NCBI GenBank assembly: GCA_016290135.1
Contig: JAEESW010000026.1
Location: 1 to 32,710, forward strand
Reading direction: 5' to 3'
DNA length: 32,710 bases
Source of the DNA: a bacterium
Lineage (GTDB): Bacteria > UBP6 > UBA1177
Position 1 is the first letter of the stretch. Each line of letters opens with the position of its first letter. A model generated the notes under the pieces. That model worked only from the letters and a program-made list of their open reading frames with translations. It searched no databases and was not told the DNA's origin. The position numbers were made by a program, and so were the translations under genes. This document shows, piece after piece, positions 10,720-32,710 of this stretch.

Positions 10720-10800
10720 TTAACGGACACAGCGGACTGCCGTGTAGTCTGAGGATGCTTTATCTTTGGACGAACCGGAACTAAACTCGAGAGCTACCTT
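10720..10800 (-). pseudogene. orphan C-terminal end of a DUF1566 domain
   Basis: Immediately past the TAG (10794-10796) of the giant lipoprotein gene, a different frame reads VALEFSSGSSKDKASSDY then TAVRCVR and stops with TAA at 10720-10722. This is the standard ending of the DUF1566 domains in this window (compare WCLDFSEG...YTRCVR at the end of the giant protein). There is no start codon or ribosome site. It is best explained as the old 3' end of the gene, left behind when the last module was replaced or duplicated. Confidence 0.65.
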
Positions 10801-13800
10801 ACGCAGCGGGTATAGTGAGTGGATATCTGCTGATAACTTTCAACCATTCCTTCACTGAAATCTAAGCACCATGCGTAAATGTCAGGGTCATCTGCGTCAA
10901 TAGAAGAAGACCATATTATGTCGGTTTCACCTAATTTGCTGTAGAGACCGTTTGTATTGTAAGCACAGCTCCTGCATGCATTCGAGATGCATTCATTGTA
11001 CGACAGACAACTCGCGGAATCTGTATCTACGACCGCACATGCACCCCCGGTGATCGTGCCGGCACAGTTTTGAATAAGCGTTCTAAGCTCACTGATCGTA
11101 GGCAGTTTCCAATCGGTGAACCCGCCGTAGGTCGAGCCTTCACAATAGTCAACAGCACCCTGCCAGTTTACTCCGCCCACTCTCGGAGACCATGTGAGTC
11201 CGCTTGCCGGATCGTAGCACGGAGTGCCTGAAGTTGGACTGCATTCAGTCACACATTCTGAGCCGTTCCATGCATATCCGTTTTCGCAGCCGCACTCATA
11301 CTGATTCCATGCTGTCGCAGTGCAGGAGTTATTCGAATGGGGAAGACCGTTGCACGGTAGATAATAACTACACGGGTTGATGCACATCGAACCGTTCCAG
11401 AACATTCCGTCATAGCATTCGCATGCATAGTCATTTGCGCAGCTGCCTGTCGAATGTACAAAAGATTGGGAACATAAGGATGCGGTACATTGTTTTACAC
11501 ACTTTGCTCCGTCCCAGACATATCCTTCGTCACAAGGAGCTTTCGTGCAGCGGGCATCCACACCGCCGACAGCCGTTGTAGAAACAGGGTTTATTCCAGC
11601 CCAATTAAACCAAAGAGTCCATGCAGCCGCACTGTTATCTTCGTATGACGATGACGACCAAAGATAATCACTGTTGCTAAGTATGCTGCTTCCTCCATCA
11701 TAACAAGAACAGGATTCAGAACTCTGGCAACTGTTTTCCAGACAACTCGTTGACGGATCGCCTGTGTCTATGACACTGCACTCTCCGCCTGTTTCTACGT
11801 CCGGGCAGTTTCGGGCAATTGTTCTCAGTTCACTGATATTCGGCAGATGCCAGCTGCCGAGTCCGCTTTCTGAATAGTTGCCGCAATAATCAACAGCAGT
11901 ATACCAAGTTACATCATCCTGTTTTGCAGACCAGATCATACCGCTTGACGGATCAAAACAGGGCGTGCCTGATGACATACTGCATTCAGGCAGGATCGTA
12001 AGATCGTCAATGCAGAATCTCTGATACCTGTATGAATTGTAACGGAATTTCAAAGCGTGTGATCCGGCTGTCAGCGGGAAGCTGTGCATAGTCCAGTCAG
12101 TCCAGCCCGTCCTCTCATTGCCCGAAGATCCATTTGTGAGAAGGATAACCGATTCGCGGTTTGTCAACACCATATCTGAAGGACTCTCTCCGTCAATATA
12201 TAGAGCAAAGACAATGTCGTGATTCGTAGTATCCTGAATACCTCTTATGTAGAAAGCTACGACTCCGTCTTCAGGCATATTTACATTTATTGTCATTTCG
12301 GAGTGATAATTATCAGCATTGTAACACATTGCATAGTTTCCGGTTTTTGCTCCAAAAGCATTCGATCTTACCCAATGATACTCTGCGGAATTGTCAACTG
12401 AAATAATTCCGGAAGAAGTGTCTTCCCATGCATCTTCAAAACTCCAGATCCTTCTTTCCTTACACTGCAGGTTTTCAGACACATATCCGCTTTCGCATTC
12501 GCAGTCAAAAGTATCAGCCGATGTTGCCTTGCATACAGAATGTTCGCCGCAGGTGTTGGAGGCGGTTTCGCACGGGCTTATACATTCAGAGCCGTCCCAG
12601 AAATATCCGTCGGCGCAGTCGCAGCTTCTGTATGCCTGATCCCATCTGTAATGATAGTCTTTGCACTTGAAGTAACAGCCGTCGCCCGCCGCACCGTCCG
12701 ATTTGTAGCTTCCGATCGTTGTCGGCAGCCATCCGTAGCCGTTCCATGTCTGCGTTACAGTGCCGTCGTTCCACCATACTGCGTTTTGAGGAAGAGTCTC
12801 GTTGTCGCAGTCAGCAGATTGTGTTTTTCCGGCACATGCGTTGGAAGAAGAGTTCCATTCGTAGTTTTCGTTGCATCTGAAGTAACAGAATCCGGCATTT
12901 TCGACTGCATTTTCACTGTATCTTGATTCCACGGTATTCGGTTCCCAACCGGTGCCGTTCCATGTCTTTTTTACAGTCGTATTCCACCACGAAGCGAATG
13001 CCGGAAGTCCGGTGCACGGTTCCTGTTTGGTGTTGGCCGCGCAGTTTGTGCCGTCATAAGTGTAGTTGTCTTTGCATTTGAAACGGCATTCGTTCGGGCT
13101 CGGTGTTTCGTTGTAGGTTCCGGTCGTTTCCGGCAGATATTTCTGCGCCGCTTCGTCCCAAGTCTGGGTTATTTTGGTATATACGTTCCATTCCGCATTT
13201 TCGGGAAGCTGACCTGTGCAGTTAGCCTCGTTCATGTCAGGATCGCATTTTCTGTATGTCTGGTTCCAGTTGTGGTGCTCTTTGCAGTGGAAGAAACAGC
13301 CGTTTCCGCCTGCATCGGATTTGTATGTTCCGGTTGTTGACGGATACCAGTCGCCGGAATTGTCGTCCCAGGTCTGCGTTATGGTTGAAACACCGTTCCA
13401 CCACAAAGCGTTTTCCGCAAGGCCTGTGCATGCAATATTTTCTTGTGTTTCAGGATCACAAGTTCTGTCTTCGCTGTTCCAGTTGAAGTGTTCTTTGCAC
13501 TCAAAACAGCAAGTTTCGCTGCACTCGTTTTCGCTGAACACAGGCTCTTCCGAAGGTTCCCATGAATCTCCGTTCCATGTCTGTACGATCCTGTTGTCGA
13601 CCATGTTCCAGATCGATTTTGCCGGTTTGCCGCTGCATTCCGTGAGTGTTTTTCTTGCGACACACTTTTTGTCACCGGCATCCCAATCGTAGTTGGTGTT
13701 GCAAACGAAACGGCACATCGTTGAACTCGGAGTTTCGTTGTACTGTCCTACTTCACTCGGATACCAGTTGTTGCCGTCGTAAGTCTGGCTGATGCCGAAA

Positions 13801-16800
13801 ACAGTGTTCCAGACCGCGTTCTCGGGCAAGCCTTCGCAGGCGATATAACGCGTCGTAGCGAGGAGACATTTGCCGTGATTCCAGTTGAAGCCCGATCTGC
13901 AGCCGCAGGTGAAACTGTAGTCGTCTGCGGTGCAGAGCCCTGTCGAATTTGCCATGCCTTTGCATGCGTTGAAGCTGCACGGATCGGCACATTCGCCGCC
14001 CAGGCACGGCTCGTCATTGCGGACGCAGATTATGTATTTTGTAGAAGTTTTGTCTGTTGCTTCGATATTTCCCGTCTCAAAATCGACTGTCCACGCCTTT
14101 GCAGTTTCGTTGACCGAACTTGTCGAAGTCCAGAAACCTTTTGCCGCGATTCCCGGGAAACCGCTCATTGCGCCGTTTGTCTTCTCGTAATCGATGAGCG
14201 AAGCAAGCTCGTTTCTGTTGGGAAGACGCCAGTCGAATCTGTCATTAGTCGAGACTTCGCCGCAGTAGTTGAGAGCTTCAGCCCATGTTCTGGAAGCAAC
14301 GGCCTGTTTCTGCCACATGAGTCCGCTGACACTGTCTTTGACTGTCTCGGCAGTTGCCGTGAAGCGGCTTTCCGGCGCATCGTATTCATTTGTTCTTACG
14401 CAGAGAACGCTGTTTTGAGTCGTTTTTGCAACACTCACAAGTGCGCCGTTTTCATCAACTCTCCAGGCGTTTCCGCTGTTTCTGTTATCTTCACTTGCCC
14501 AGAAAGCGTGTCCTTTGGCAGTGAATATGCCGCCGAGCGCAGGGCTTGCCGTGCTTGAATCAACTATCGTGAGGAGTTCTGCCGGGCCCGGTATTCTCCA
14601 GAGCGATGACGAGCCGCTTTCATCGTTGAGATGAGAGCAGTAGTCGTTTGCGGAGCTCCAGTTCATAGCCGTGCTTGATGAAGCCTGCCACTCGTAGTGG
14701 GTGAAAGCGTCTTTTATTATTCCGTTTCCGGCTGCAGAAAGCGTGTGGGGAGTGCAGAATCCTGCTTCTGCATACTGAGCATCCTGACCGAAGAAAGCAA
14801 CGCCATAAGCCGGACATTCCGTCTCTGCCGTATTGTCTGAGCAGCTGTCTGCGCCCGTGCAGATGAGGGCAAGCGAAAGCGGAGCTTCAATGCATGCAGA
14901 ACCGTTCCATTTGTAGCCTTTTGCACACGAGAATGAGCATTCTTCTTTCGTTGTACCGAAAGTTGCAGCCTTTGCTGCCGGAAGCCAGTTCGTGCCGTTA
15001 TAAGTTTGAGCGAATGTGCCGTAACCGTCGTTCCAAAGCGCGTTTGCAGGAAGGTTTCCGCAGCTTTCAGTCGTTTTCGAGCAGTTTCCTGCCGTGATGT
15101 AGCCCGAGCAGTCTGCGGCGCACGGAGCGGAGCCCGTCGAATTGCCGAAACCCGCTATTTCCGCACATGCCTTGGATCCGCCGTCGCAGCCTTCACCTTC
15201 ATCCAAAATGCCGTCGCCGCAAAGTGCCGCTTTTCCGCATTCAGACTTGTTGAACGTGCAGGTATTGGGATCGCATGTTGCACTCTTTTCAGGATAGGTC
15301 GAAGCCGGATAGATCGTTCCGCAGGAAACAGGTTCGGAAAGCGTCGGTTCGCACTCTTCGGCCGAATCGACGATGCCGTTTCCGCATGCGTTCTTTGCAA
15401 CTACCGTTATCGTTTTTTCGTTGTCTCCTTCGTAAAGCGTTATCGCCTCGAGGTATCTGTACATATCCTCACCGACTGCCAAAAGCGTGTATCTGCCTGA
15501 ATTCATTTCGATATTTAGTGTTTCGTATTTGCCGGTTCCTTCAACGAATTTCGCAGTCTCGTTTGCAACCAGATCCATGTCGTCGTTGTAGATCTGGACA
15601 TAAACTTTCGACGGATGCTTTACCGTGTTTATGTTTACTTTGAGTTCAAGGTTTGCGTCAGCCGTGCCCGTAAGCTCTTCGTCAAGCCTGATCTCAACGC
15701 TGAATGTCGCACCTGCCGGAACGTTTACGCTTGCGCTCTTTGCATAATATCCGTCAGCATAAGCATCGACCGTGTAAGCCGCCGGAGTGAGGTTTTCAAT
15801 GCTTACTACACCGTTTTCAGAGTAGAAGACCTTGTTCCCGGGGTTGAGGATCACTGTCGGATTTGCGTTTGCGTGAATTGCATGACCCGTTGAATCGTTT
15901 ACGAAGATCTGAATGTTTGCAGGAACTTCCTTCGAATTTACGCCGTCACTGTCGTTGTTTACGAAGAACTCGTAGGTCTTCTGCGTCGTGTAGGTCTTTC
16001 CTGAGATCTTCGAGTTCGCGACTATCGTCATTTTGCCCGTGATATTGCCGAGAGAATCGACATTTTCGCTTCCGAGAAGGGTCTTGAGAGCAGTTTCACC
16101 CTGAGAAAGGTTTCCCGGAGCGAGAACTATCGTTTTTTCTTTCTTTTCCCCTCTCGGCTTGTAGTAAGTACGCGTATTTTCCTGAACTTTCTCGAATTCT
16201 TTTCCTTCGATACTGATGATAACTTTTTCGACATCTGCGCTTCCAGCCGCGACTTTGAGAGAGATCTGATCGGTAAGTGCGCTCAGTTTGGTGAGATATG
16301 GAACTGTCGCCATTTCAACGCCGTCAAGAACGGCAACTGTGTGAGCCGAAGCGTCGAAAGTATCAACTATTGAAACTGCGTTCATGTTGCCGTTGATGCC
16401 GTCAAAAACGAGGTATGCAGTCTCAAGGAGAGCATCGTGAAGTTCTTCGACATCGCTTCCGTTGTAGAAGATCGTTCCAGCATATTTCAGTGCAAGGTAG
16501 AAAGTCCTGAAAAGATCGAGCTTTTCATCGTTGGAAAGGCGGCTGTTCATCGGCATTAAGTATCTGGTGAATATTGCGTTCGCCTCTGCGACGCTGACTT
16601 CGGTGCCTCCAAGCGTAACGTGGCCGTTTTCGTTGAGAGTGTAAACTTTATTGCAGTTGGCAGCTTCCGTATCGGGATCCAGCCATGCGCAGACGAGCTG
16701 GTCGGGAGTGAGGACCGTTTCGACGTTGCTGAAATCGGGCCCTTTCGATGATGTCGTGATGTAGTTCGCAAAGATCATCATCTCTTTCTTCGTCGCTGCA

Positions 16801-18935
16801 TATTCAGTGTTGCCTGCAAGTGCATTCCTTGCTTTGGCAGTGTAGTCTTCCGGCGCGTTTCCGCTGTAGGTGAGCGGGATCAGCGAGGAGTCTGTCAAAT
16901 CTGCGAAAGTGGTGCTTCTGTTGTATGAAGTCGTTGCGGTATAAAGTGCCGCGATCGCGCTTCTCAGCTCAAGACCGTTCTTAACCGCTGCAACTGCGCC
17001 GCTTTCACGTTTTGCCTTCATGCGGTTATAGAACTCAGAAACAAAGAAAAGGTTCTCAATAAGATTCAAATTCCTCTGGAAGCCCACAGGCTTATTGATA
17101 AGTTCGTAAAGGTCGTTTCCGAGATCTGCGAACTTCTCACAGGTAAGATACGGAAGGAGAGAGCTTTCAGGTTTGTATGTCTGGAATCCGAGTTTGATGA
17201 ACTCAATCGGGGAATATCCGCGGTAGAATGAGCCGTCGCACCATCTTGCAACAAGATTGTCCACAGAAACGGGAAGATTTGCTGCTTCGACCGTGAATGT
17301 CGAATAGTGGTTCGTCTGCGAGATCATGACGCTCGAGCTCGTTCCCATCATGATCGGATCGCCTGCAGCGCTTGCCATGATCGGATCTCCCGCAGCCGAA
17401 GCCATGATCGGGTCTCCTGCAGCAGCAGACATTATCGGATCTCCTGCTGCGCTCGTCATGATCGGATCTCCTGCAGCACTTATCATGATCGGATCTCCGC
17501 CTCCACTTTTTGCGATCTGCATGATAGGATCGCCTCCGGCAGAGAACATTATCGGATCACCGCCTGCAGCAAGCATGATCGGGTCGCCGCCTACTGACTG
17601 AAGGACATCGCTTGAGCCGTTGGAATTTGCTCTTTTTGCTGAAAGCATGATCGGATCACCGCCGAAAACGGTGCCCAATTCGTGGATGAAATACATCGAA
17701 TCGCCTTCGAAAACGGCGCCTTCAGGCCTGAATCTGAGCCTCGAGACTTGAGGACCACCAGCAGTCAAGACTTCGTAACTTATTGAATTTATTTTGCTTC
17801 CGTTCTTTTTGACAGCTGTTCCCTTAGGAATTACGCCGTAGATACCGTCGTCTATCCTGAACGAAATGTCCTTCGACGTATCGCTTACATAGACCGTGCC
17901 TCCGTTTTTCTTCTGCAAAAAGAGGACTGTTGCAGAATCCTGCGAAAGAGTGTCACTGCCCGAAACAAGTTTTGCTCTTGCCGTGTATTCGCCCGGAAAG
18001 GAAGTAGTGAATTTGTAAGACGCAGCTTCGGCTGTTTTGTTCTGAACTGTCCAGCTGATTTTGAAATTCGGAGCAACTTTCGTGCTGCCGCCTTCAACGC
18101 TGAAATTTGCGTTGCTGTCAGCCGTTTCGCCGATAACTATCTCAGTTTTGTTTACAGAAACTTTGAAGCCGTTGAAGAGTTTCGCAAATTCGGGGGATTC
18201 CTTCTTCGCGTCTTCGGCGATCTTTTCAGAAAGGGTCTCCGCATCGCTTGAACCGATGAAGGAGGAGAGGAGTTTGAGTCCGTCATTTATTCCCGAAAGC
18301 CCGGAATAGTCGAGTTCACCCAGCCATTCTCCTGTTCCGATTTTTGTGTAAGTTCTTATTTTTGTTTCGCTTTTGCGCATATCAGCACAAGTCTTGTCGA
18401 GAAGATACGCCGCAGTCGTGATCTCGGAAATATTTGCGACATGGTCGCTCATTCCTTTGAAGCAGCTTGCTAGGTCACCAGCTTTTACGCAGTAGGTCTT
18501 AGCTGCCGAAATGTCAGCCTTGAATGAATATTTGCCTTTTGCATCGGTATCCGCCTCTGCGATCTTATCTGCTCCGCCGCATTCGTAAAGGGCGACTGAC
18601 GTTGCGCTTCCAGCCTGAACGGCACCGCTGATCCTGCGGCTTTCTGTCGCTTCAGGATCTACAGGAGCTTCATCCGGTGTTTCATCGGGAGTTTCGGGAT
18701 CGTCGTGATCTTCCGGTTCTTCCGGATTCTCATCAGGTTTTTCTGTATTGTCCGGTTCTTCCGGTTCTTGAGGATCGTCTGTATCCTTGTCCGATATTTC
18801 TACATCCGAAATGTCGGCATCGTCCGAATCACCGTCGGGATAGTCGTAAACGGTCTCCTTTTTGCCGCCGCCGCAGCTCATCATGAAAATCAGACTCAGA
18901 ATTGCCGGAAATACCCAAATCCTTCTCATTCCCAT
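10794..18935 (-). CDS. giant modular lipoprotein with GDPIM repeats, Cys-rich, EGF-like and DUF1566 domains
   Basis: 2713 residues. The signal peptide ends in a lipobox (LSLIFMMS|C, Cys21). An Asp/Glu/Pro linker (about 30-98) probably crosses the envelope or surface layer. Then: a carboxypeptidase-regulatory-like module (103-152); beta-rich segments; ten [AG]GDPIM repeats (425-531); a helical stretch (560-870); Ig/PEGA-like modules (about 900-1180); two Myxococcus-type disulfide repeats (CGNGIVDSAEECE 1184, CGDGILDEGEGCD 1239); seven CxGLPxNAxWN...C Cys-rich repeats (1292-2105). Two DUF1566 domains (1405-1515, 1530-1640) and an EGF-like module interrupt these repeats. A MAM/jelly-roll-like domain (2161-2318), DUF1566 (2325-2464), EGF-like modules (2468-2565) and a last DUF1566 (2572-2713) follow. 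GGAGG stands five bases before the ATG. A surface adhesin or structural role is inference; many modules are shared with the protein at 3-2567. Confidence 0.88.
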   Translation of the reverse strand: MGMRRIWVFPAILSLIFMMSCGGGKKETVYDYPDGDSDDADISDVEISDKDTDDPQEPEEPDNTEKPDENPEEPEDHDDPETPDETPDEAPVDPEATESRRISGAVQAGSATSVALYECGGADKIAEADTDAKGKYSFKADISAAKTYCVKAGDLASCFKGMSDHVANISEITTAAYLLDKTCADMRKSETKIRTYTKIGTGEWLGELDYSGLSGINDGLKLLSSFIGSSDAETLSEKIAEDAKKESPEFAKLFNGFKVSVNKTEIVIGETADSNANFSVEGGSTKVAPNFKISWTVQNKTAEAASYKFTTSFPGEYTARAKLVSGSDTLSQDSATVLFLQKKNGGTVYVSDTSKDISFRIDDGIYGVIPKGTAVKKNGSKINSISYEVLTAGGPQVSRLRFRPEGAVFEGDSMYFIHELGTVFGGDPIMLSAKRANSNGSSDVLQSVGGDPIMLAAGGDPIMFSAGGDPIMQIAKSGGGDPIMISAAGDPIMTSAAGDPIMSAAAGDPIMASAAGDPIMASAAGDPIMMGTSSSVMISQTNHYSTFTVEAANLPVSVDNLVARWCDGSFYRGYSPIEFIKLGFQTYKPESSLLPYLTCEKFADLGNDLYELINKPVGFQRNLNLIENLFFVSEFYNRMKAKRESGAVAAVKNGLELRSAIAALYTATTSYNRSTTFADLTDSSLIPLTYSGNAPEDYTAKARNALAGNTEYAATKKEMMIFANYITTSSKGPDFSNVETVLTPDQLVCAWLDPDTEAANCNKVYTLNENGHVTLGGTEVSVAEANAIFTRYLMPMNSRLSNDEKLDLFRTFYLALKYAGTIFYNGSDVEELHDALLETAYLVFDGINGNMNAVSIVDTFDASAHTVAVLDGVEMATVPYLTKLSALTDQISLKVAAGSADVEKVIISIEGKEFEKVQENTRTYYKPRGEKKEKTIVLAPGNLSQGETALKTLLGSENVDSLGNITGKMTIVANSKISGKTYTTQKTYEFFVNNDSDGVNSKEVPANIQIFVNDSTGHAIHANANPTVILNPGNKVFYSENGVVSIENLTPAAYTVDAYADGYYAKSASVNVPAGATFSVEIRLDEELTGTADANLELKVNINTVKHPSKVYVQIYNDDMDLVANETAKFVEGTGKYETLNIEMNSGRYTLLAVGEDMYRYLEAITLYEGDNEKTITVVAKNACGNGIVDSAEECEPTLSEPVSCGTIYPASTYPEKSATCDPNTCTFNKSECGKAALCGDGILDEGEGCDGGSKACAEIAGFGNSTGSAPCAADCSGYITAGNCSKTTESCGNLPANALWNDGYGTFAQTYNGTNWLPAAKAATFGTTKEECSFSCAKGYKWNGSACIEAPLSLALICTGADSCSDNTAETECPAYGVAFFGQDAQYAEAGFCTPHTLSAAGNGIIKDAFTHYEWQASSSTAMNWSSANDYCSHLNDESGSSSLWRIPGPAELLTIVDSSTASPALGGIFTAKGHAFWASEDNRNSGNAWRVDENGALVSVAKTTQNSVLCVRTNEYDAPESRFTATAETVKDSVSGLMWQKQAVASRTWAEALNYCGEVSTNDRFDWRLPNRNELASLIDYEKTNGAMSGFPGIAAKGFWTSTSSVNETAKAWTVDFETGNIEATDKTSTKYIICVRNDEPCLGGECADPCSFNACKGMANSTGLCTADDYSFTCGCRSGFNWNHGKCLLATTRYIACEGLPENAVWNTVFGISQTYDGNNWYPSEVGQYNETPSSTMCRFVCNTNYDWDAGDKKCVARKTLTECSGKPAKSIWNMVDNRIVQTWNGDSWEPSEEPVFSENECSETCCFECKEHFNWNSEDRTCDPETQENIACTGLAENALWWNGVSTITQTWDDNSGDWYPSTTGTYKSDAGGNGCFFHCKEHHNWNQTYRKCDPDMNEANCTGQLPENAEWNVYTKITQTWDEAAQKYLPETTGTYNETPSPNECRFKCKDNYTYDGTNCAANTKQEPCTGLPAFASWWNTTVKKTWNGTGWEPNTVESRYSENAVENAGFCYFRCNENYEWNSSSNACAGKTQSADCDNETLPQNAVWWNDGTVTQTWNGYGWLPTTIGSYKSDGAAGDGCYFKCKDYHYRWDQAYRSCDCADGYFWDGSECISPCETASNTCGEHSVCKATSADTFDCECESGYVSENLQCKERRIWSFEDAWEDTSSGIISVDNSAEYHWVRSNAFGAKTGNYAMCYNADNYHSEMTINVNMPEDGVVAFYIRGIQDTTNHDIVFALYIDGESPSDMVLTNRESVILLTNGSSGNERTGWTDWTMHSFPLTAGSHALKFRYNSYRYQRFCIDDLTILPECSMSSGTPCFDPSSGMIWSAKQDDVTWYTAVDYCGNYSESGLGSWHLPNISELRTIARNCPDVETGGECSVIDTGDPSTSCLENSCQSSESCSCYDGGSSILSNSDYLWSSSSYEDNSAAAWTLWFNWAGINPVSTTAVGGVDARCTKAPCDEGYVWDGAKCVKQCTASLCSQSFVHSTGSCANDYACECYDGMFWNGSMCINPCSYYLPCNGLPHSNNSCTATAWNQYECGCENGYAWNGSECVTECSPTSGTPCYDPASGLTWSPRVGGVNWQGAVDYCEGSTYGGFTDWKLPTISELRTLIQNCAGTITGGACAVVDTDSASCLSYNECISNACRSCAYNTNGLYSKLGETDIIWSSSIDADDPDIYAWCLDFSEGMVESYQQISTHYTRCVR
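17343..17663 (-). repeat. ten GDPIM repeats inside the giant lipoprotein gene
   Basis: Residues 425-531 contain ten copies of [AG]GDPIM. Copies 5-10 follow each other at exactly nine residues (27 bases), with consensus AGDPIMxSA. Copies 1-4 are spaced irregularly and have GG before DPIM. At DNA level each unit carries the complement of catgatcggatc, so the tract is a homogenised tandem array. I do not recognise the motif as a named family. Asp-Pro-Ile turns every nine residues could give a small beta-solenoid or a protein- or ion-binding strip; that is speculation. Confidence 0.85.
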
Positions 18936-24898: not shown

Positions 24899-25150
24899 TC
24901 ACTCGAAAAGCTCGTTTTTGTGTCTACTTTTTGGGGATAGAGCCACTTCTTTCAGGCGGTAGTATGAGTCATACTGATAAGCGGTCCTGCGGTTTTCCTC
25001 GTTTTCCTGCTTCCCGATGAGGTGAAGCCCTTTGGAATAGGTGTATTCATAATCTGCGACTGTCGGTGCGTTCAGCGATGTGAAATCTTCTTTTCTGCGG
25101 CTGACTTTGCGCCAGTCGTCTTTATGCTTAATTCCATTAATTCTAAACAT
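24899..25150 (-). pseudogene. decayed Rhs/YD-repeat fragment
   Basis: An 83-codon open frame. Its second half (ADYEYTYSKGLHLIGK...YQYDSYYRLKEV) matches Rhs core residues about 72-112 of the gene at 27048-28997 (MSYNYSRGWHLIEK...YTYDSYYRLKEV). It then ends in unrelated sequence. The first 26 codons show no Rhs pattern, and the putative ATG overlaps the preceding gene by eight bases without a good ribosome site. This is an internal piece of an Rhs gene at the distal edge of the array, not a functional protein. Confidence 0.7.
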
Positions 25151-25456: not shown

Positions 25457-25798
25457 CTATACTGTATAACCGAAAATGTTAAAGACAAAAAGCACCAGAA
25501 AAAGCCGAAACAAGAACAATAAAATAATTGTGTTTCTGAATTTTTTTATATGTGGTGCAAAAAAGCTGGAAATTACGTAACTTATGTGAACTATTAAAAA
25601 ACATGGAATACCTATTAAAAATGAAAAACCTCCGATATCTGACAATAATTTAATATTGCCCATTTTTGATCCACAACCCCAAATAAACAATATTCCCCAA
25701 AAAACCAACAAATAAGTGAATTCAGAAGCTAAAATAAAAGCATAAAACAATTTATTACTATTTATTTTTTTCATTATTCCATTGATTATCTTAACCAT
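25457..25798 (-). CDS. membrane protein, candidate Rhs immunity protein (N-terminal half homologue)
   Basis: 113 residues with about three hydrophobic helices. The start chosen is the ATG at 25796-25798 (MVKIINGIMKK). GGAGG at 25806-25810 lies seven bases upstream, inside the codons of the Rhs tail gene, whose last 13 bases this gene overlaps. The frame continues upstream only because it runs antiparallel in another frame of that tail. MVKII, the central helices and LRxTxILLFLFR...LxFVF resemble the first half of the protein at 26509-27060. It ends where that protein continues, and the missing half is supplied by the next gene. Acts presumably in the inner membrane; the toxin it would neutralise is no longer present next to it. 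Confidence 0.65.
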   Translation of the reverse strand: MVKIINGIMKKINSNKLFYAFILASEFTYLLVFWGILFIWGCGSKMGNIKLLSDIGGFSFLIGIPCFLIVHISYVISSFFAPHIKKFRNTIILLFLFRLFLVLFVFNIFGYTV

Positions 25799-26031
25799 GG
25801 ATCTACCTCCGGCTGAACAAACCCGCTTTGCTGCCACTTTTCGTAAGTATTGGCCCATGTTCTAGATGTAGGAAGAGCTAATGGATTTCTGACAAGAATC
25901 GGCTTCGAACCATCATATCCGAGAATCAAAATATTTTTTAGAGGGTCCTTGTTTACATAGTACGGATTTTTATAAATCATTATCGCTCCGTTTGGTCCGG
26001 TGCTGGTGTAATTACTTTTTCTCTTTTGCAT
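25786..26031 (-). pseudogene. orphan Rhs C-terminal tail (no core, no toxin domain)
   Basis: An 81-codon frame. From STGPNGAI onwards (about 26004 down to 25786) it matches the last 72 residues of the Rhs protein at 27048-28997: NPYYVNKDPLK, RNP, YEKWQQSGFVQPEVDPWLR. The first nine codons overlap the end of the secreted-protein gene by 20 bases in another frame and have no Rhs similarity. The piece has lost its Rhs core and cargo but keeps an intact frame and the embedded ribosome site of the next gene. It may persist as a recombination target and translation-initiation segment rather than as a working protein. Confidence 0.7.
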
Positions 26032-26464
26032 TACGTTGGCTTTTTTGTTCTAAAAGTATTTTCTGACATCCTTCAGCATTGAAAAACTTATCCCCGGTTC
26101 CTGTCAACGATATCAACTGCAATCCCTTTGCAGAACTTGGATAATCTTTAAGTTCTGAATATGAAAAAACATATTTTATCCCAACTCTTTCAATCAGAAT
26201 TTTATTGCCGTCCACTTTGTAATCGACTGTTGATGAATAGGTTACTTCTCCAGCGTTGTCACCATCTTCCGACCAGAATTCATGGAAAACGAACTCAGCT
26301 TTTTTGTTGCTTAGAAAAATGATTTTTGTGGAAAGTTCGCCTTCACAGATACTTTGAAAAGTTTTTCCTGACAAATTAAAATTGTGTTGCTTTTCTGTCT
26401 TTTCTTTTCCAAAAACAGAAAACGAAATAGAAACAGCAATCATAAAAATAAAAAATGCTTTCAT
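26012..26464 (-). CDS. small exported protein, candidate Rhs immunity protein
   Basis: 150 residues. A signal peptide (KAFFIFMIAVSISFSVFG) probably cleaves after Gly19. The mature part is beta-rich (STKIIFLSNKKAEFVFHEFW, EVTYSSTVDYKVDGNKILIERVGIKYVFSYS), with two Cys (in SICEG and EGCQK) that could pair in the periplasm; the C-terminus is Lys-rich. I do not recognise a family; a small lipocalin-like barrel is possible. GAGGTAG directly before the ATG follows a short remnant reading NIDPYW[Y]stop, like an Rhs tail. Position after a tail remnant suggests it is a periplasmic immunity protein. Confidence 0.6.
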   Translation of the reverse strand: MKAFFIFMIAVSISFSVFGKEKTEKQHNFNLSGKTFQSICEGELSTKIIFLSNKKAEFVFHEFWSEDGDNAGEVTYSSTVDYKVDGNKILIERVGIKYVFSYSELKDYPSSAKGLQLISLTGTGDKFFNAEGCQKILLEQKSQRNAKEKK

Positions 26465-26473
26465 AGCTACCTC

Positions 26474-26509
26474 TTAATACCAATAAGGATCGATATTTCC
26501 GCGGTAATT
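26474..26509 (-). pseudogene. vestige of an Rhs tail end
   Basis: Between the membrane-protein stop (26509-26511) and the exported-protein ATG (26462-26464), one frame reads NYRGNIDPYWY then TAA at 26474-26476. It resembles the tail ending QPNVDPYWQ-stop at 30927. The ribosome site GAGGTAG follows at once. The match is only about six residues, so it is suggestive, supported mainly by its position. Confidence 0.4.
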
Positions 26510-27060
26510 TAGTAAGTCATAAATCCTAAACTCTGTAAAATGTAAAAACATACTAATGATAACAAAAATACGACAATCATAATTTTTCTCTTGTTTTCTA
26601 GCCCCTTAACAAAAAAGCTCGCTATAAAACATATTTCAAAAATTAGATACGGAATAATTTCAATGCTCCCTGAAATTAAGTGCTTAAAAAGCAAAAGGTT
26701 TTTGTCCGGTTGCTTTCCCGATCTATAGATGGCATCTAAAACAATATTACCACCCAACCAATTAACAAAAACAAAAGAGAGCAGCAGTATTCTGAATAGA
26801 AAAAGCAATATTGCTGTTTTTCTTAAATATTTTAATTCCTCCATCTTAAAGCTCACAAATATGTAGTATATGTGAAAAGCCAAAAAATATATGAAGGGAG
26901 CTACTACTATAAACAAAAAAGTAGTTTCTGAATTTAATATGGACAATTTATAATACAAATGGAACTCGACCCACAATCCAAAAAATATGAACAAATAAAA
27001 GATTTCAGAAATCAAAACCAGATGGTGCCATAGTTTATCACTATCGATTATCTTAGCCAT
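26509..27060 (-). CDS. multi-pass membrane protein, candidate immunity protein of the adjacent Rhs toxin
   Basis: 183 residues with about five hydrophobic helices (roughly 10-30, 42-68, 82-102, 125-150 and 160-180). The start is the ATG at 27058-27060 (MAKIIDSDKLW). GGAGGTGG (27065-27072) lies within the Rhs tail codons, and the gene overlaps the last 13 bases of that Rhs frame, including its stop. This arrangement is identical to the one at 25786-25798, and the product is homologous to the two-gene set 25457-25798 plus 25143-25445. AT-rich composition. It directly follows an Rhs toxin gene, so an immunity function in the inner membrane is the simplest reading; no recognised domain supports it. 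Confidence 0.7.
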   Translation of the reverse strand: MAKIIDSDKLWHHLVLISEIFYLFIFFGLWVEFHLYYKLSILNSETTFLFIVVAPFIYFLAFHIYYIFVSFKMEELKYLRKTAILLFLFRILLLSFVFVNWLGGNIVLDAIYRSGKQPDKNLLLFKHLISGSIEIIPYLIFEICFIASFFVKGLENKRKIMIVVFLLSLVCFYILQSLGFMTY

Positions 27061-28997
27061 GGATCCACCTCCGGCTGAATAAACCCGCTTTGCTGCCATT
27101 TTTCATAAGTTGTGGAGTCATAACCGTAACTTGCCCCAGGAACAAAAGGATTGCGGTAAATCATGGGCTTACCAGAACCGTTATTGCCATCAAACAAGAT
27201 AGTTTTCAATGGATCTTTGTTCACATAATATGGATTGCGGTAAATTTTAATTGCGCCGTTGGGTCCTGTGCTGGTATCAATGAAAACAGGCGGTTGTTCA
27301 CTTTCTCCACGCTTCAGCATTTTCGCCAAAATGTTATTCATCAAAATTTTTTGAATGGCGTTTGAAGGGTCTTTGTCTGGATCCGACGGCATATTTTCCC
27401 CTGTTGCCCCAGAACAATTTCCAGATACACACTGGCAACTACCATAACTGCACTCAACATCAGCTTCTGGGTATTTGCTTCTTATAGGATTTGTTCCAAA
27501 ACTATCGTCATCTTCTACTGCCTTGGATTCGGGATTTGTTCCATCACCATTGTTAGGAATTTCCCTGTCGGAATCAGCTTTATCAGGTTCTTCATCAGGA
27601 GTATTTCCTGCGATTTTATTGAATAATTTTTTTGCTGTATCAAAATCATAAATCCCTTTTTCAAACATAGAAAACATCTTTTTGGAAAAACCACGACAAT
27701 TAGTGCCTGATGAAGTAAAAAGGATAGCATATTTCCCTTGAGATCTAATTAATCTATTTAATATATTTCTTGCCATTTCGTCTTGCTGAGGAGAAGTCTT
27801 AAGTTTAATTTTTACTTTTCCAGCTTTGTTGGAATCGTCTGAATAAACAACGCCTCTTACATTCAATCCGAAGATTGCGCTACTCATATTTGGCAATCTG
27901 TATAGTATACCATCATTTTCAAATATAGCTCCAAAACTCCAAGATTTATACCCGTTAATATTTCCTGGATCAGTAACAGATATTTTCTGATGCATGAAAA
28001 AATCATCGTCTGTACCATCTTCAATCCAAATATCCAACCCACTCGGATCACTCGCCTCAATGACCATTCCGGCAACGTAGGCGAAGCCATTACCTAAGTT
28101 GTTGGCATCTCCCCAGATTCCGATTGGATCTTGGTTGATGAAGCGGTGCATGTCGATGTGGTAATAACGGTTTCGCATCCAGTAAAGGCCTGTTTCGGAC
28201 TCGTAGAGCGAGCCGCCCCAGATGAAATTGTGCAGGTTCGTTGCATAGCAGGTCTGGTTGCTGCAGTTTTTCGGCGAGAACTGGGAATCAAGGATTTCAA
28301 AATCACCGTAAACACGGTATCTGTAACGCTCTAAAACATTGCCGTTTGCATCGGTGAGGGCTGTCACATTTCCGCGTTCATCAGTCAGGAAATAATAAAG
28401 TGTGGAAGTGTTGTTCGCGGTGACTTCGATTGCGATATGTCTGTCTGTGCCGGAATCGATGATGTTTGTGTAATCGTCCGAATTTGTTGATATTTCAACT
28501 ATATCCCAATCGTCGTAAGTGTATCTTTCAGTTGTGCTTCCGACGGTTTTCGTTATGCGGCGGTTGAATGCGTCGTAGGTGTAAGTTGCAATTGTTTGAT
28601 TACTGCCGTCCTGATAAAAATTGTCGGTTCTTGCCGCCGTGTTATTTGCAAAGTCGTATTTGACTTCTTTCAGGCGGTAGTATGAATCATAGGTGTATTT
28701 ATCCGATGTGTTCTTTATGCCGTCTGCTTTCTCAATCAGGTGCCAGCCGCGTGAATAGTTGTAGCTCATGTCATAAATATCGGCATTTGCATTGCTTACC
28801 GTATGATTGTCGAGCATGTTCCAGTTGTTGTAACTGAATGTCTCGATCAGGTTCTGACCTTTTGTAATGGCGGAGAGGACTCCGTTTGCGCGGCTGTATG
28901 ATGCGATTTCGGAATTGTTGTATTCGATCAAATCAAGGTCGTTTCCGGTAGCTGTCTTGCGGAGTGTCTTGCCATTTTCAATTTGTTTTTCATGCAT
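27048..28997 (-). CDS. N-terminally truncated Rhs protein with putative papain-like cargo and conserved tail
   Basis: 649 residues. Residues 1-316 are YD/Rhs core, ending in the canonical GLYWMRNRYYHIDMHRFINQDPIG...DPSGL. There is no signal or N-terminal shell region, and compared with the neighbour gene about 73 codons are missing in frame at residue about 130. The variable domain (about 320-460) has FMHQKISV (His336), SWSFG and TNCRGFSKKMF (Cys434). A His before a helix-capping Cys is reminiscent of permuted papain-like (NlpC/P60, LRAT-like) enzymes; this is a weak call. A Ser/Asp-rich linker with four Cys follows, then the conserved tail (578-649). The frame starts 18 bases after the WG-protein stop without a clear ribosome site, so it looks like an orphan toxin tip. 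Confidence 0.75.
   Translation of the reverse strand: MHEKQIENGKTLRKTATGNDLDLIEYNNSEIASYSRANGVLSAITKGQNLIETFSYNNWNMLDNHTVSNANADIYDMSYNYSRGWHLIEKADGIKNTSDKYTYDSYYRLKEVKYDFANNTAARTDNFYQDGSNQTIATYTYDAFNRRITKTVGSTTERYTYDDWDIVEISTNSDDYTNIIDSGTDRHIAIEVTANNTSTLYYFLTDERGNVTALTDANGNVLERYRYRVYGDFEILDSQFSPKNCSNQTCYATNLHNFIWGGSLYESETGLYWMRNRYYHIDMHRFINQDPIGIWGDANNLGNGFAYVAGMVIEASDPSGLDIWIEDGTDDDFFMHQKISVTDPGNINGYKSWSFGAIFENDGILYRLPNMSSAIFGLNVRGVVYSDDSNKAGKVKIKLKTSPQQDEMARNILNRLIRSQGKYAILFTSSGTNCRGFSKKMFSMFEKGIYDFDTAKKLFNKIAGNTPDEEPDKADSDREIPNNGDGTNPESKAVEDDDSFGTNPIRSKYPEADVECSYGSCQCVSGNCSGATGENMPSDPDKDPSNAIQKILMNNILAKMLKRGESEQPPVFIDTSTGPNGAIKIYRNPYYVNKDPLKTILFDGNNGSGKPMIYRNPFVPGASYGYDSTTYEKWQQSGFIQPEVDPWLR
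27065..27072 (-). promoter_or_regulatory. ribosome binding site embedded in Rhs tail codons
   Basis: GGAGGTGG is read in the Rhs frame as part of the codons for PEVD. It positions ribosomes for the membrane-protein ATG at 27058-27060, seven bases after GGAGG. The same device is at 25806-25810 (GGAGG) for the ATG at 25796-25798. Confidence 0.75.
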
Positions 28998-29015: not shown

Positions 29016-30917
29016 TCACGAAATAAACATAAAGATGCTTCCGGTATAAACCAGTTCCCCGTCCTTCATCTCAAGAAACAGAAGCCAGCCTGTTCCGCAC
29101 AAAGGTCCGCAATACTCTTCCCTGTAAACCATTATGGTGTCTGATTCAGGGTCATAGAGAGGGATCGAAAATTTAATGATTCGGTGTCCTGAAACTTTAT
29201 TCAGACAGCTCTCCATGTCATATTCTTCGCTTCCGTTTTCTCCATAACAGATGCTGTCGCTTACAATACCGTCTTTTTCACAGGAATATTTTTCCAAACC
29301 TGAAACGGCTATTGATTTTCTGTTTGTTTCAATGAATTTTTCAACAAATTTCTCAGCATCGTTCTTCTGCATTTTCTCCGCTATACCCGATACATCGTGC
29401 TTTTCGATACGGCGGAATGTGTTTTCAGAACTTTTGGAAGCCACCAGATAACATGATTCTTTATCGTGAAAATGAGCATAGTGTTCAATAATTTTTTGCA
29501 GAAGTTCATCGGCTCCCATTTTTAAAAGAACAGGATTCGGTTCGGCTTTCCCGAACATTTTTTCGATCCTTCTCCTCGGCAGCCAGTAATCTTCCGCGAG
29601 GATTTCCTTCTCTTTCCATTCATAGCAGACAGGCTCGACATAGCGCAGTTCGTCAAGAGATTTCCAGTCAGGATCTATCTCAAAAATCTTTTTTCCGCTC
29701 CTGTCTATCACGAAGTAATGTTCTTCCTTCTTAACCCATGTCCTGCCGAAATAAAACGCGCTTACGCTATCGTATTCTGCCGGAATAATTTCCTTCCCGT
29801 TTTCGTCAAGGAATCCCCATTTTCCCTTGTATTTGAATGAAACTGATTTTTCTTCAGGGCACATACTTTTTCTTACATTTTCATATTTGCTATCTTCATC
29901 CTCTGTGATTTCGATGCTATGCGGAGTTTCCATCTTTTCGTTGCAGTTCTCATCCATTTCTGTAAAAAAAGAGGGTTTGACTTTATCGCAGATTTTTTTG
30001 CCGGTTGAAGCGTCGAAAACTACGAAGTGATTTTCTTTCTTGTCTTTTTTCTTATAGTCAAGATAGAAACTGTTGTTTCCGATGGCATTTCCGTTGCTGT
30101 TAAAAATATAGGTAATCTCTTTTGCCGTATCCTGCATAAGAAAAATTTTATTGTTTTCAGCGGTTACCAAATAGATAGACGAACCTTTTTTTAAAACAGC
30201 TTTCCCTTTGGTCATTCCGAAAAATCCATCATATTCCTCTTCTGAAACCTTTGCCTTTTTAAGATCGACAACTCTGAATTTTCCGTTTTTCGAAACAACC
30301 ATCGTCCCGAGACTGTGACCATCTATTCCGTCGAATTGAGGAGGAAAAACAAAAAGCCCGTTTTTATCTATTACAAACCACAAGGTCTCCTTTTTCAGAG
30401 CCGTCATACCCTCATCCAAACGAATGATTCCTTTAAATTCAGGTTTAGCGATAAAATCCCCTTTTTCATTTATAACTCCCCAGAAACCGTCTTTTCTGAC
30501 CTCCGCCGTTCCATTAGAAAATCTGTCAACAGTATCGAATTGCGGCTTTGCAACATAATTCAAATTTTTATCAACGAATCCCCAGTTGCCGCTTTGAATA
30601 TCCGAAACTGCAAGCAGTCCTTCCGAATAAGAACGATCAATGTCTCGGAATTTGACATCTTTTATCTTTTTTCCAGTTTCATTGAGAAAAACAAACTCTT
30701 TTTGGGTCGTAAAAGCTGGAATCAGACCGTCTTTTATCTTGTCTATGTAGAGATATTCAGCCGGAATCACCTCTTTTCCGTTTTCATCAAGAAGACCGAA
30801 AAGTCCGTTTTTATCCGAAAAAATATAGCGTGCTTTTGTTTTTGCAGAATCCGGCACAGATGAATGATTTGAACAGGCTGCAAAGAATAGAATGGTTAAA
30901 AATATTAGTTTTTTCAT
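29016..30917 (-). CDS. WG-repeat lipoprotein between two Rhs genes, candidate immunity protein
   Basis: 633 residues. The signal peptide has a lipobox (TILFFAA|C, Cys15). WG/KWG repeats fill about residues 30-260 and 360-420: GLFGLLDENGKEVIPAEY, NWGFVDKNLNYVAKPQFD, FWGVINEKGDFIAKPEF, KWGFLDENGKEIIPAEYD. The last 200 residues are different: a helical part, then Cys-containing strands. WG repeats build beta-propeller-like binding surfaces and occur in many secreted proteins of unknown role. It begins nine bases after the Rhs stop with TAGGAG as ribosome site, the position where Rhs immunity genes stand. It may protect against the HExxH peptidase cargo from the periplasmic side. It is much larger than most known immunity proteins, so an accessory role is possible. 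Confidence 0.75.
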   Translation of the reverse strand: MKKLIFLTILFFAACSNHSSVPDSAKTKARYIFSDKNGLFGLLDENGKEVIPAEYLYIDKIKDGLIPAFTTQKEFVFLNETGKKIKDVKFRDIDRSYSEGLLAVSDIQSGNWGFVDKNLNYVAKPQFDTVDRFSNGTAEVRKDGFWGVINEKGDFIAKPEFKGIIRLDEGMTALKKETLWFVIDKNGLFVFPPQFDGIDGHSLGTMVVSKNGKFRVVDLKKAKVSEEEYDGFFGMTKGKAVLKKGSSIYLVTAENNKIFLMQDTAKEITYIFNSNGNAIGNNSFYLDYKKKDKKENHFVVFDASTGKKICDKVKPSFFTEMDENCNEKMETPHSIEITEDEDSKYENVRKSMCPEEKSVSFKYKGKWGFLDENGKEIIPAEYDSVSAFYFGRTWVKKEEHYFVIDRSGKKIFEIDPDWKSLDELRYVEPVCYEWKEKEILAEDYWLPRRRIEKMFGKAEPNPVLLKMGADELLQKIIEHYAHFHDKESCYLVASKSSENTFRRIEKHDVSGIAEKMQKNDAEKFVEKFIETNRKSIAVSGLEKYSCEKDGIVSDSICYGENGSEEYDMESCLNKVSGHRIIKFSIPLYDPESDTIMVYREEYCGPLCGTGWLLFLEMKDGELVYTGSIFMFIS

Positions 30918-30926
30918 TTCAATCTC

Positions 30927-32710
30927 CTATTGCCAATACGGGTCTACATTTGGCTGTATAAAACCAGATTGCTGCCATTTTTCATGGGTCGTTGAATCAT
31001 ATCCGTATTTAGCTCCAGGTGCGAACGGATTCCTGACAAATCCATTTGTACCATCGGAATTCTGTTTATTCCAAAACAGTTCTTTCAACGGATCTTTGCC
31101 TTTGTAGTATGGATTGAAAATAAAAACTTTTCTGCCATTGTTGTCATATTTGATAATTGGACCAACTTCATCCATAATTTCGAGAAAGCTCTTTTTTTCT
31201 CGTATTTCAAGAATTTTTTTGATGAACTGATTTGCAAAATATGTCTGAATTTTGTCTTCTGAAGAATCTGGATCTCCAGGATATTGTTCTCCTCCTTTCT
31301 TCTTTTTTTCCTCTTCTTCTTTTGCCTTGTTTTGGTTCTTTACAGCATTCTTTTCTGCTTCTTTAACTGCTTTCTCAAGTTCTTCTATCAGTTTTTCCAG
31401 CTCATTTATCACTTCTTTCAGCATTTTAATTTTGTCTGCATCTTTTTCTTTTTTTAAATATTGTTGTATTTGCTCCAAAAAAGCTTTTAACTCATCAATA
31501 TTTGGAGCATTAATTATAAATTTATCATAGATAAAATGAGTCAGTTCGTGAGCCAACTTCTCAGCCAACGAAAGGGCCTCTTTACCACCGATAACCACAA
31601 GGTAATCTTGAGACATCTCTTTTTCATCATATTTATACGTAAAACTACCTACATTTTTATCATCATCACATTCAATATGCACCTTGTTGTTTCTATCTAT
31701 TTCTGCTATATCCCATAATTTTGCAACTACTGAATTGTCATTTACAACCTTCATAACATCATCCATACATGATTCTTCTCTAAAGGCTGTTACTAGCCCC
31801 GTCGGATCACTTGCCTCAATGACCATTCCTGCGACATAAGCGAAGCCGTTGCCGAGGTTGTTGGCATCTCCCCATATACCGATGGGGTCTTGATTGATAA
31901 AGCGGTGCATATCAATGTGGTAGTAACGGTTGCGCATCCAATAAAGACCTGTTTCTGGCTCATAGAGGGAGCCGCCCCAGAGGAAGTTGTGTAGGTTTGT
32001 TGCATAGCAGGTCTGGTTGTTGCAGTTTTTCGGCGAGAATTGGGAATCGAGGACCTCAAAATCGCCGTAAACACGGTATCTGTAACGCTCTAAAACATTG
32101 CCGTTCGCATCTGTGAGGGCTGTCACATTTCCGCGCTCGTCGGTGAGGAAATAATAAATTGTGGAAGTGTTGTTTGCGGTGACTTCGATTGCGATATGTC
32201 TGTCTGTGCCGGAATCGATGATGTTTGTGTAATCGTCCGAATTTGTTGATATTTCAACGATGTTCCAATCGTCATAGGAGTATCTTTCTGTCGTGCTGCC
32301 GACTGTTTTTGTAATGCGGCGGTTGAATGCGTCGTAGGTGTAAGTTGCAATCGTGTTTTGACTTCCGTCCTTGACTTCAATGAGGCGGTTCAGGTCGTCG
32401 TAGATATAGGTTTTATCGTCTGTTGTGCCGCTTCTGTCCTCGGAAATCATGTTGTTCCTTTCATCGTATTCATATGCGGATTCTGTGTTGCTTCCGATTT
32501 TTTTGTTTCTTAGTCTGTTGAGTTTGTCCACTCCCCATGCATAGGTTATGCCGTTTTCGGTGCTCTGTTCGATGTTGTGGACTCCATCCTGATAGTAGCT
32601 GTCGGTTCGTGCAGCTGTATTGTTGGTAAAATCGTATTTGACTTCCTTCAGGCGGTAATATGAATCATAAGCATATTTATCGGAAGTGTTCCTGATGCCG
32701 TCAGCTTTTT
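30927..32710 (-). CDS. Rhs/YD-repeat protein with putative HExxH metallopeptidase cargo and conserved tail, 5' end outside window
   Basis: The frame stays open to base 32710 (upstream codons read KADGIRNTSDKYAYDSYYRLKEVKYDF and on), so the protein continues beyond the edge; the GTG at 32529-32531 is internal. The YD-repeat core ends in GLYWMRNRYYHIDMHRFINQDPIG and DPTGL at about 31800. The variable part follows: LAEKLAHELTHFIYDKF (31536-31550 encodes HELTH, a zincin HExxH motif), then a Glu/Lys coiled coil of about 65 residues, a GGEQYPGDPDSSED linker and a helical segment. The conserved tail (NPYYKGKDPLK...HEKWQQSGFIQPNVDPYWQ) closes it. The Rhs shell would encapsulate the cargo until delivery. 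A zinc peptidase toxin is a reasonable inference; the third metal ligand is not obvious. Confidence 0.82.
   Translation of the reverse strand, partial: KADGIRNTSDKYAYDSYYRLKEVKYDFTNNTAARTDSYYQDGVHNIEQSTENGITYAWGVDKLNRLRNKKIGSNTESAYEYDERNNMISEDRSGTTDDKTYIYDDLNRLIEVKDGSQNTIATYTYDAFNRRITKTVGSTTERYSYDDWNIVEISTNSDDYTNIIDSGTDRHIAIEVTANNTSTIYYFLTDERGNVTALTDANGNVLERYRYRVYGDFEVLDSQFSPKNCNNQTCYATNLHNFLWGGSLYEPETGLYWMRNRYYHIDMHRFINQDPIGIWGDANNLGNGFAYVAGMVIEASDPTGLVTAFREESCMDDVMKVVNDNSVVAKLWDIAEIDRNNKVHIECDDDKNVGSFTYKYDEKEMSQDYLVVIGGKEALSLAEKLAHELTHFIYDKFIINAPNIDELKAFLEQIQQYLKKEKDADKIKMLKEVINELEKLIEELEKAVKEAEKNAVKNQNKAKEEEEKKKKGGEQYPGDPDSSEDKIQTYFANQFIKKILEIREKKSFLEIMDEVGPIIKYDNNGRKVFIFNPYYKGKDPLKELFWNKQNSDGTNGFVRNPFAPGAKYGYDSTTHEKWQQSGFIQPNVDPYWQ

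What the first reader, a model, noticed from the sequence alone, without database searches (positions are those of the whole stretch)
25786..27072. Immunity-gene ribosome site and start codon encoded inside the toxin's last codons
In two copies the codons for PEVDPWLR-stop supply GGAGGT[GA]GATCC followed by ATG of the next gene, with identical 13-base overlaps (27048-27060 and 25786-25798). Toxin and immunity translation are thus coupled. The protein motif may be conserved partly because of this nucleotide function. In the third copy (30927) the tail reads PNVDPYWQ and the site TAGGAG lies just after the stop instead.
Basis: partly seen in the sequence, partly recalled or inferred. Interest (0 to 1): 0.75.

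Follow-up and report, generated by a model that had tools for sequence, protein, structure and literature searches.

The report
Toxin tail encodes immunity gene's start
In a rumen bacterium of an uncultured phylum, the last codons of antibacterial-type toxins double as the ribosome landing site and start codon of the neighbouring protective gene, and this ending is reused as a swappable part with many different protective genes; the principle (overlapping, probably coupled genes) is known, the reusable toxin tail is a new variant.

Summary
On the minus strand the codons for PEVDPWLR-stop supply GGAGGT and, 7 nt after GGAGG, the ATG of the next gene (27060 and 25798). The two 13-base overlaps differ at one base, the 25786 copy is a tail without RHS or toxin domain, and in the third copy the stop TAG is itself part of TAGGAG. 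The tail recurs after variable toxin domains and as orphans in candidate phylum UBP6. Of 87 endings, 28 have Glu and all 28 carry an out-of-frame ATG in their last codons; 59 are not Glu, of which one truly overlaps. Glu is GAG in 28 of 28 (background 14-23%) while Val and Asp third positions vary. Same-tail pairs with different immunity genes lose identity exactly at the ATG, so the ribosome site belongs to the exchangeable tail. The predicted constraint is supported; coupling is inferred, and folding gives no sign of a masked ribosome site. Exceptions: one Asn tail overlaps without a Shine-Dalgarno, one Glu tail has its gene after the stop. Overlapping toxin-immunity genes are known; this is a new variant.

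The parts
27048..28997 (-). RHS-type toxin reading frame (649 aa): RHS core end, EASDPSGL, variable domain with a Cys motif (TNCRGF), conserved tail
   Evidence: RHS_repeat only below Pfam's cut-off for this copy (17.8 bits, cut-off 22)
27051..27272 (-). conserved C-terminal tail (about 74 aa) ending PEVDPWLR
27057..27072 (-). GGAGGTGGATCCATGG: Shine-Dalgarno inside the Pro-Glu-Val codons and ATG of the next gene inside Pro-Trp
26509..27060 (-). putative immunity gene (183 aa, hydrophobic, begins MAKII), overlaps the toxin by 13 nt
   Evidence: function inferred from position
26012..26464 (-). 150-aa reading frame with signal-peptide-like start, upstream neighbour of the orphan tail
25786..26031 (-). 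orphan tail: 81-aa frame of tail only, ending PEVDPWLR
25795..25810 (-). GGAGGTAGATCCATGG: Shine-Dalgarno and ATG inside the orphan tail
25457..25798 (-). putative immunity gene (113 aa, begins MVKII), overlaps the orphan tail by 13 nt
30927..32531 (-). RHS-type toxin with a metallopeptidase-like motif (AHELTH) and tail ending PNVDPYWQ; its frame runs on to the contig end
30924..30929 (-). TAGGAG: stop codon and Shine-Dalgarno fused (non-overlapping class)
29016..30917 (-). WG-repeat lipoprotein-like putative immunity gene (633 aa), starts 9 nt after the toxin stop

Best explanation
A family of RHS-type (polymorphic, probably antibacterial) toxins in candidate phylum UBP6 carries, after its variable toxin domain, a constant tail of about 70 aa whose DNA also serves as the 5' leader of the next gene, the putative immunity gene. 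The tail ends in one of two interchangeable ways. Ending A (PEVDPW, PEVDPSW, PEVDPLW): codons CCG-GAG-GTN hold the Shine-Dalgarno sequence, and the A before TGG gives the ATG, so the genes overlap by 7-13 nt. Ending B (PNVDPY..): no site in the codons; the stop TAG with the following GAGG is the Shine-Dalgarno and the gene starts usually 9 nt later. Recombination joins tails to new immunity genes at the start codon (ending A) or just before it (ending B), so each immunity gene comes under a ready-made ribosome site next to the toxin's stop, also where only an orphan tail remains. Most likely effect (inferred): immunity is made whenever the tail is translated. Shown: sequence architecture, covariation, codon constraint, junction. 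Inferred: coupling, toxin and immunity functions.
For: Tail found in 14 of 15 genus genomes, 19 of 28 in the phylum sample. Of 87 endings (4 of 91 rows dropped as spurious): 28 Glu with GAG 28/28 and an out-of-frame ATG 28/28; 59 others, 2 with such an ATG (1 real). The ATG leads a frame of 102-364 codons in 19 of 28. Background GAG 23% of 3,410 Glu codons, 26 of 183 in the tails, 37 of 240 before GT. Changes on the tail-body tree: Glu third 0, next Pro third 0, Asp third 6, Val third 12. Spacing from Shine-Dalgarno to start 7 nt in 23 of 28; 16S rRNA ends in CCTCC. Junction: 15 same-body, different-immunity pairs fall from identity 1.0 to 0.53 at the ATG. One immunity family (11 rows) has both endings: overlap with Glu 3 times, no overlap with Asn 7 times, Glu without overlap once. 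13 switches of ending on the tail-body tree; of 6 independent pairs on supported branches overlap goes with Glu in 5.4 on average and against in 0. GGAGGTNGAYCCATGG occurs only at these tails in 15 genomes (17 matches, control 0).
Against: The independent-pairs test alone is not significant (median p 0.0625). The Asn codon of ending B is as unchanging as the Glu codon of ending A although it has no such role. No sign that the Shine-Dalgarno is masked by folding (0.38 against 0.40 unpaired). Overlaps of 7-13 nt are not the best spacing for coupling according to a review (PMC12548453, passages). G004:C46:2819 keeps an intact 108-aa overlapping gene with Asn and no Shine-Dalgarno; G016:C169:20496 has Glu but its gene starts after the stop. 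In 8 of 28 Glu tails the overlapping frame is truncated. No expression data.
Confidence: 0.72

Rival explanations
1. Hitch-hiking: ending A arose once with one immunity lineage and is dragged along by recombination; GAG and the overlap are shared ancestry, not selection on the ribosome site.
For: All 6 RHS-bearing toxins with ending A have variable regions with Cys motifs of two kinds, and 12 of the 28 downstream genes form one family. AAT is equally frozen in ending B.
Against: Asp and Val third positions of the same ending changed 6 and 11-12 times while Glu and Pro thirds changed 0 times. The ATG sits in Pro-Trp, Ser-Trp or Leu-Trp in different tails, always with GAG upstream. Ending A precedes several gene families that do not match each other by BLAST.
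Confidence: 0.2
2. Protein-level covariation: Glu and Trp (ending A) and Asn and Tyr (ending B) are alternative protein caps with different binding properties, and the ribosome site is a by-product.
For: Ending residues covary strictly; the tail is conserved at protein level (pN/pS about 0.19 in toxin tails).
Against: Trp is shifted by a residue (PSW, PLW) in 4 of 28 with Glu kept; one hybrid PNVDPWE exists; the third codon position of Glu is fixed against codon bias.
Confidence: 0.06
3. Ordinary compact operon: an independent ribosome site that happens to lie in coding DNA, with no coupling of translation.
For: Strong Shine-Dalgarno, no masking structure; overlapping genes are common in bacteria (PMC12548453, passages).
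Against: The overlap is kept over 28 tails and reused with several gene families; a free-standing site would not need to sit in the tail.
Confidence: 0.3

Closest known systems
Translationally coupled overlapping gene pairs (review PMC12548453, passages read)
   Same: Co-oriented genes, start codon within a few bases of the upstream stop, Shine-Dalgarno as an aid to coupling
   Different: Here the upstream part is one constant tail joined to many unlike downstream genes, with two alternative codon endings; coupling not measured
Bacteriocin-immunity overlaps: mcbC/mcbI of Moraxella catarrhalis (PMC2761928, passages read); sakacin P operon of Lactobacillus sakei (title seen in reference lists only, PMC1169027 not held)
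   Same: Toxin 3' end overlaps immunity 5' end, proposed co-regulation
   Different: Single small bacteriocins; no constant tail reused across toxins, no alternative endings in what I saw
Orphan cdiA-CT/cdiI and rhs-CT/rhsI arrays (PMC3150448, passages read)
   Same: RHS or CDI toxins, exchangeable modules, orphan immunity genes kept downstream with own Shine-Dalgarno
   Different: There the constant part lies before the toxin domain (VENN, DPxGL); here there is also a constant part after it, and 57 of 87 copies lack the RHS motif searched for
Immunity gene arrays by successive displacement in Vibrio cholerae T6SS clusters (PMC5361080, passages read)
   Same: Arrays of orphan immunity genes; an old effector 3' end shifted back with its immunity gene
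   Different: No shared tail across effectors and no embedded ribosome site described in the passages seen

Membership tests
RHS polymorphic toxin with C-terminal variable domain | RHS/YD repeats in the protein | tested here: met
   PF05593 at 41.3 bits, above cut-off 22, for the 30927-32531 copy; 17.8 bits, below cut-off, for 27048-28997
RHS polymorphic toxin with C-terminal variable domain | DPxGL-type motif followed by a variable domain | tested here: met
   EASDP[ST]GL followed by dissimilar regions of about 155-250 aa in the long copies listed
RHS polymorphic toxin with C-terminal variable domain | toxin domain at the extreme C-terminus | tested here: not met
   a conserved tail of 70-110 aa ends all 26 sequences aligned (at least one of them an orphan), behind the variable regions; hence filed as a variant
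RHS polymorphic toxin with C-terminal variable domain | toxic activity neutralised by the adjacent immunity protein | not testable with these tools
   none; inferred from gene order
translationally coupled gene pair | close or overlapping co-oriented frames with Shine-Dalgarno | tested here: met
translationally coupled gene pair | downstream site masked by RNA structure (unfolding model) | tested here: not met
   unpaired probability 0.38 against 0.40 with shuffled flanks, 28 sequences; the reinitiation model does not need it
translationally coupled gene pair | downstream translation depends on upstream translation | not testable with these tools
   needs reporter or ribosome profiling data
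orphan toxin/immunity arrays | detached toxin fragments with downstream immunity genes near a full-length toxin | tested here: met
   30 rows with RHS motif, 57 without (one of these is 316 aa and may be a cut-off toxin); G010:C11 holds about 11 tails in 17 kb. Orphans hold the tail, not the toxin domain

The most novel reading that the evidence does not exclude
The constant tail is a dual-use connector: as protein it is part of the toxin, as DNA it is a portable ribosome-binding leader with a recombination border set at the start codon, so that any immunity gene captured there is expressed in step with the toxin; the residue Glu or Asn in the protein is set by whether the RNA must carry the ribosome site. 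Orphan tails persist as leader cistrons that keep stored immunity genes translated.
Probability: 0.35. Interest if true: 0.62.

Novelty: new variant of a known kind. Interest (0 to 1): 0.5.

Why it matters
Toxin modules that swap partners must bring immunity expression along with them. A constant coding tail that contains the next gene's ribosome site and ends at its start codon would be a simple solution, and a natural case in which a protein residue is chosen by an RNA function. It gives ready-made natural pairs (same tail, different ending; same immunity family, both endings) for measuring coupling.

Tried and rejected
Rejected: identical overlaps (one base differs); 25786 as a toxin end. 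Rejected: a relay in which orphan tails start by -1/-4 stop-start overlap on the upstream gene: 18 of 45 orphans with an upstream gene show it, but out-of-frame stops inside tails do so in 0.288 on average, p = 0.07 without correction for relatedness. Rejected: masking of the Shine-Dalgarno by folding. Led nowhere: AlphaFold model of the tail from 26 sequences, mean pLDDT 47.8, so no fold search was run; Pfam on the tail-only frame, no family; viral contigs, none of 64 candidate stretches confirmed; plasmids, no match. The AAT invariance of ending B is only partly explained: before GT, AAT makes up 130 of 163 Asn codons. The codon background comes from long stop-to-stop frames and may contain some antisense frames. 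pN/pS of orphan tails (0.197) equals that of toxin tails (0.188), but this does not separate selection after from before orphaning; pairs were compared ungapped and filtered by divergence. Papers: searches; none of the listed titles and abstract starts describes a constant post-toxin tail with a ribosome site; this is no proof of absence from print. PMC3482391 was asked for six terms and held none of them.
Full report
What is there. The window lies in an uncultured bacterium of candidate phylum UBP6 from the ruminant gut: related loci come from records titled bacterium UBP6_UBA1177 and UBP6_UBA1209 and from other rumen and gut assemblies; the window itself is G000:C47. On the minus strand the 3' part of the window holds, in order of transcription, an RHS-type toxin (30927-32531, its frame runs on to the contig end), a WG-repeat lipoprotein-like gene (29016-30917), a second RHS-type toxin (27048-28997), a hydrophobic gene (26509-27060), a 150-aa frame (26012-26464), a tail-only frame (25786-26031) and another hydrophobic gene (25457-25798).

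Check of the observation. Both endings CCG GAG GTN GAT CCA TGG YTA AGA TAA are as described, with GGAGG followed after 7 nt by the ATG of the next gene. The overlaps differ at one base. The 25786 copy is an orphan tail, not a toxin. In the third copy the stop codon is part of TAGGAG. The 3' end of the 16S rRNA in this genome reads GGCTGGATCACCTCC, so GGAGG is a proper Shine-Dalgarno. GGAGGTNGAYCCATGG occurs 17 times in 15 whole genomes of the genus, each time at the end of this tail, with no match of the reversed control.

The tail. About 74 aa (NPYYxxKDPLK ... RNPFxPGAEYGYDSTTYEKWQQSGFxQPxVDP) follow dissimilar variable domains in the long copies and also stand alone before putative immunity genes. 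Own genome 11 matches; 14 of 15 genus genomes; 17 of 19 family genomes; 19 of 28 phylum genomes, none of the 3 outside the order. No relative in viral contigs or plasmids. An AlphaFold model is not confident.

Two endings. From 91 rows found by a motif scan of 44 fetched stretches I dropped 4 spurious ones; 87 remain: Glu 28, Asn 56, Asp 2, Lys 1. All 28 Glu tails have an out-of-frame ATG in their last codons; 2 of 59 others have one, of which G000:C27:38927 is spurious by frame (Fisher p about 9e-21, not corrected for relatedness). The Glu tails' ATG leads a frame of 102-364 codons in 19, a truncated frame of 15-46 codons in 8, and in one (G016:C169:20496) the gene instead starts 9 nt after the stop. 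In the others the stop is TAG in 45 of 59 and followed by GAG in 35 of 59, so the stop codon helps to form AGGAG(G).

Synonymous sites. In Glu tails: Glu GAG 28 of 28, next Pro CCA 26 of 26, Val 4 forms, Asp 20 GAT and 8 GAC. On the tree of tail bodies (26 rows) third-position changes are Glu 0, Pro 0, Asp 6, Val 12; on the tree of downstream DNA (27 rows) 0, 0, 6, 11. In Asn tails (53 rows) the Pro third changes 21 times, Asp 11, Val 21, but the Asn third also 0 times. Asn before GT is AAT in 130 of 163 background codons, Glu before GT is GAG in 37 of 240: GAG runs against the bias, AAT with it. This removes part, not all, of the doubt.

Independence and border. Ending switches 13 times on the tail-body tree (81 rows, many weak branches); 6 independent pairs on supported branches, Glu going with overlap in 5.4 on average, never against, median p 0.0625. 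A direct case: G010:C2:83052 (Glu, overlap) and G009:C17:87589 (Asn) are identical over the first 66 nt shown before the ending and then differ. Across 15 pairs with the same body and different immunity genes identity falls from 1.0 to 0.53 exactly at the ATG in ending A; across 38 such pairs in ending B it falls just behind stop and GAG, a few bases before the start codon. One immunity family is found with both endings: 3 overlapping with Glu, 7 not overlapping with Asn, 1 Glu not overlapping. The one real counter-example in the other direction, G004:C46:2819, has Asn, an intact overlapping gene and no Shine-Dalgarno; its DNA looks like a crossover between endings.

Mechanism. Architecture and constraint are shown; translational coupling is inferred from overlap plus Shine-Dalgarno. 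The review PMC12548453 (passages) reports that coupling is most efficient at -4 to +3 nt and falls with larger overlaps, so -7 to -13 nt is not optimal; the strong Shine-Dalgarno may compensate. Folding shows no special masking. Overlap of toxin and immunity genes has precedents (PMC2761928, passages; PMC7132975, passages), and orphan immunity arrays too (PMC3150448; PMC5361080, passages). What I did not find described in my searches is a constant tail behind the toxin domain that carries the ribosome site for exchangeable partners.

Verdict. A real, well supported but mechanistically familiar feature: a new variant of overlapping, probably coupled toxin-immunity genes, with a reusable tail as the new element.

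Noticed in passing
L046, L047, L049, L052, L054, L059, L072 (tail ends): Several Asn-type tails end in a tandem repeat of the ending (such as PNVDPYSNLQQGGFIQTNVDPYWY), as if a second ending had been added by recombination.
   Followed up: no
window 24920-24944 (in the RHS fragment 24899-25150), G004:C46:3774, G014:C15:7962: A 25-nt sequence (GGCTCTATCCC.AAAAAGT..ACAC) ends an RHS fragment in the window and follows a truncated immunity frame in G004; 3 of 15 genus genomes have it.
   Followed up: partly
L075 1427-1454, L058 445-472, L063 554-581, L048 2140-2167: Nearly the same truncated 24-aa immunity start (MAKIIEKIKRRPLFFTYIF.FRNA) followed by the same 28-nt sequence in four genomes.
   Followed up: partly
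window 10794-18935 (-): 2713-aa lipoprotein-like protein with many GGDPIM repeats and Cys-rich repeats.
   Followed up: no
L094 (JAFSNZ010000035.1): A contig labelled Methanobrevibacter holds three such tails; probably a contaminant contig.
   Followed up: no
L043 1-20000 (G010:C11): Dense array of about 11 tails in 17 kb with putative immunity genes between them.
   Followed up: partly
Asn-type tails, codon before Val-Asp-Pro: Asn is AAT in 55 of 56 although neighbouring synonymous sites vary freely; only partly explained by context bias.
   Followed up: partly
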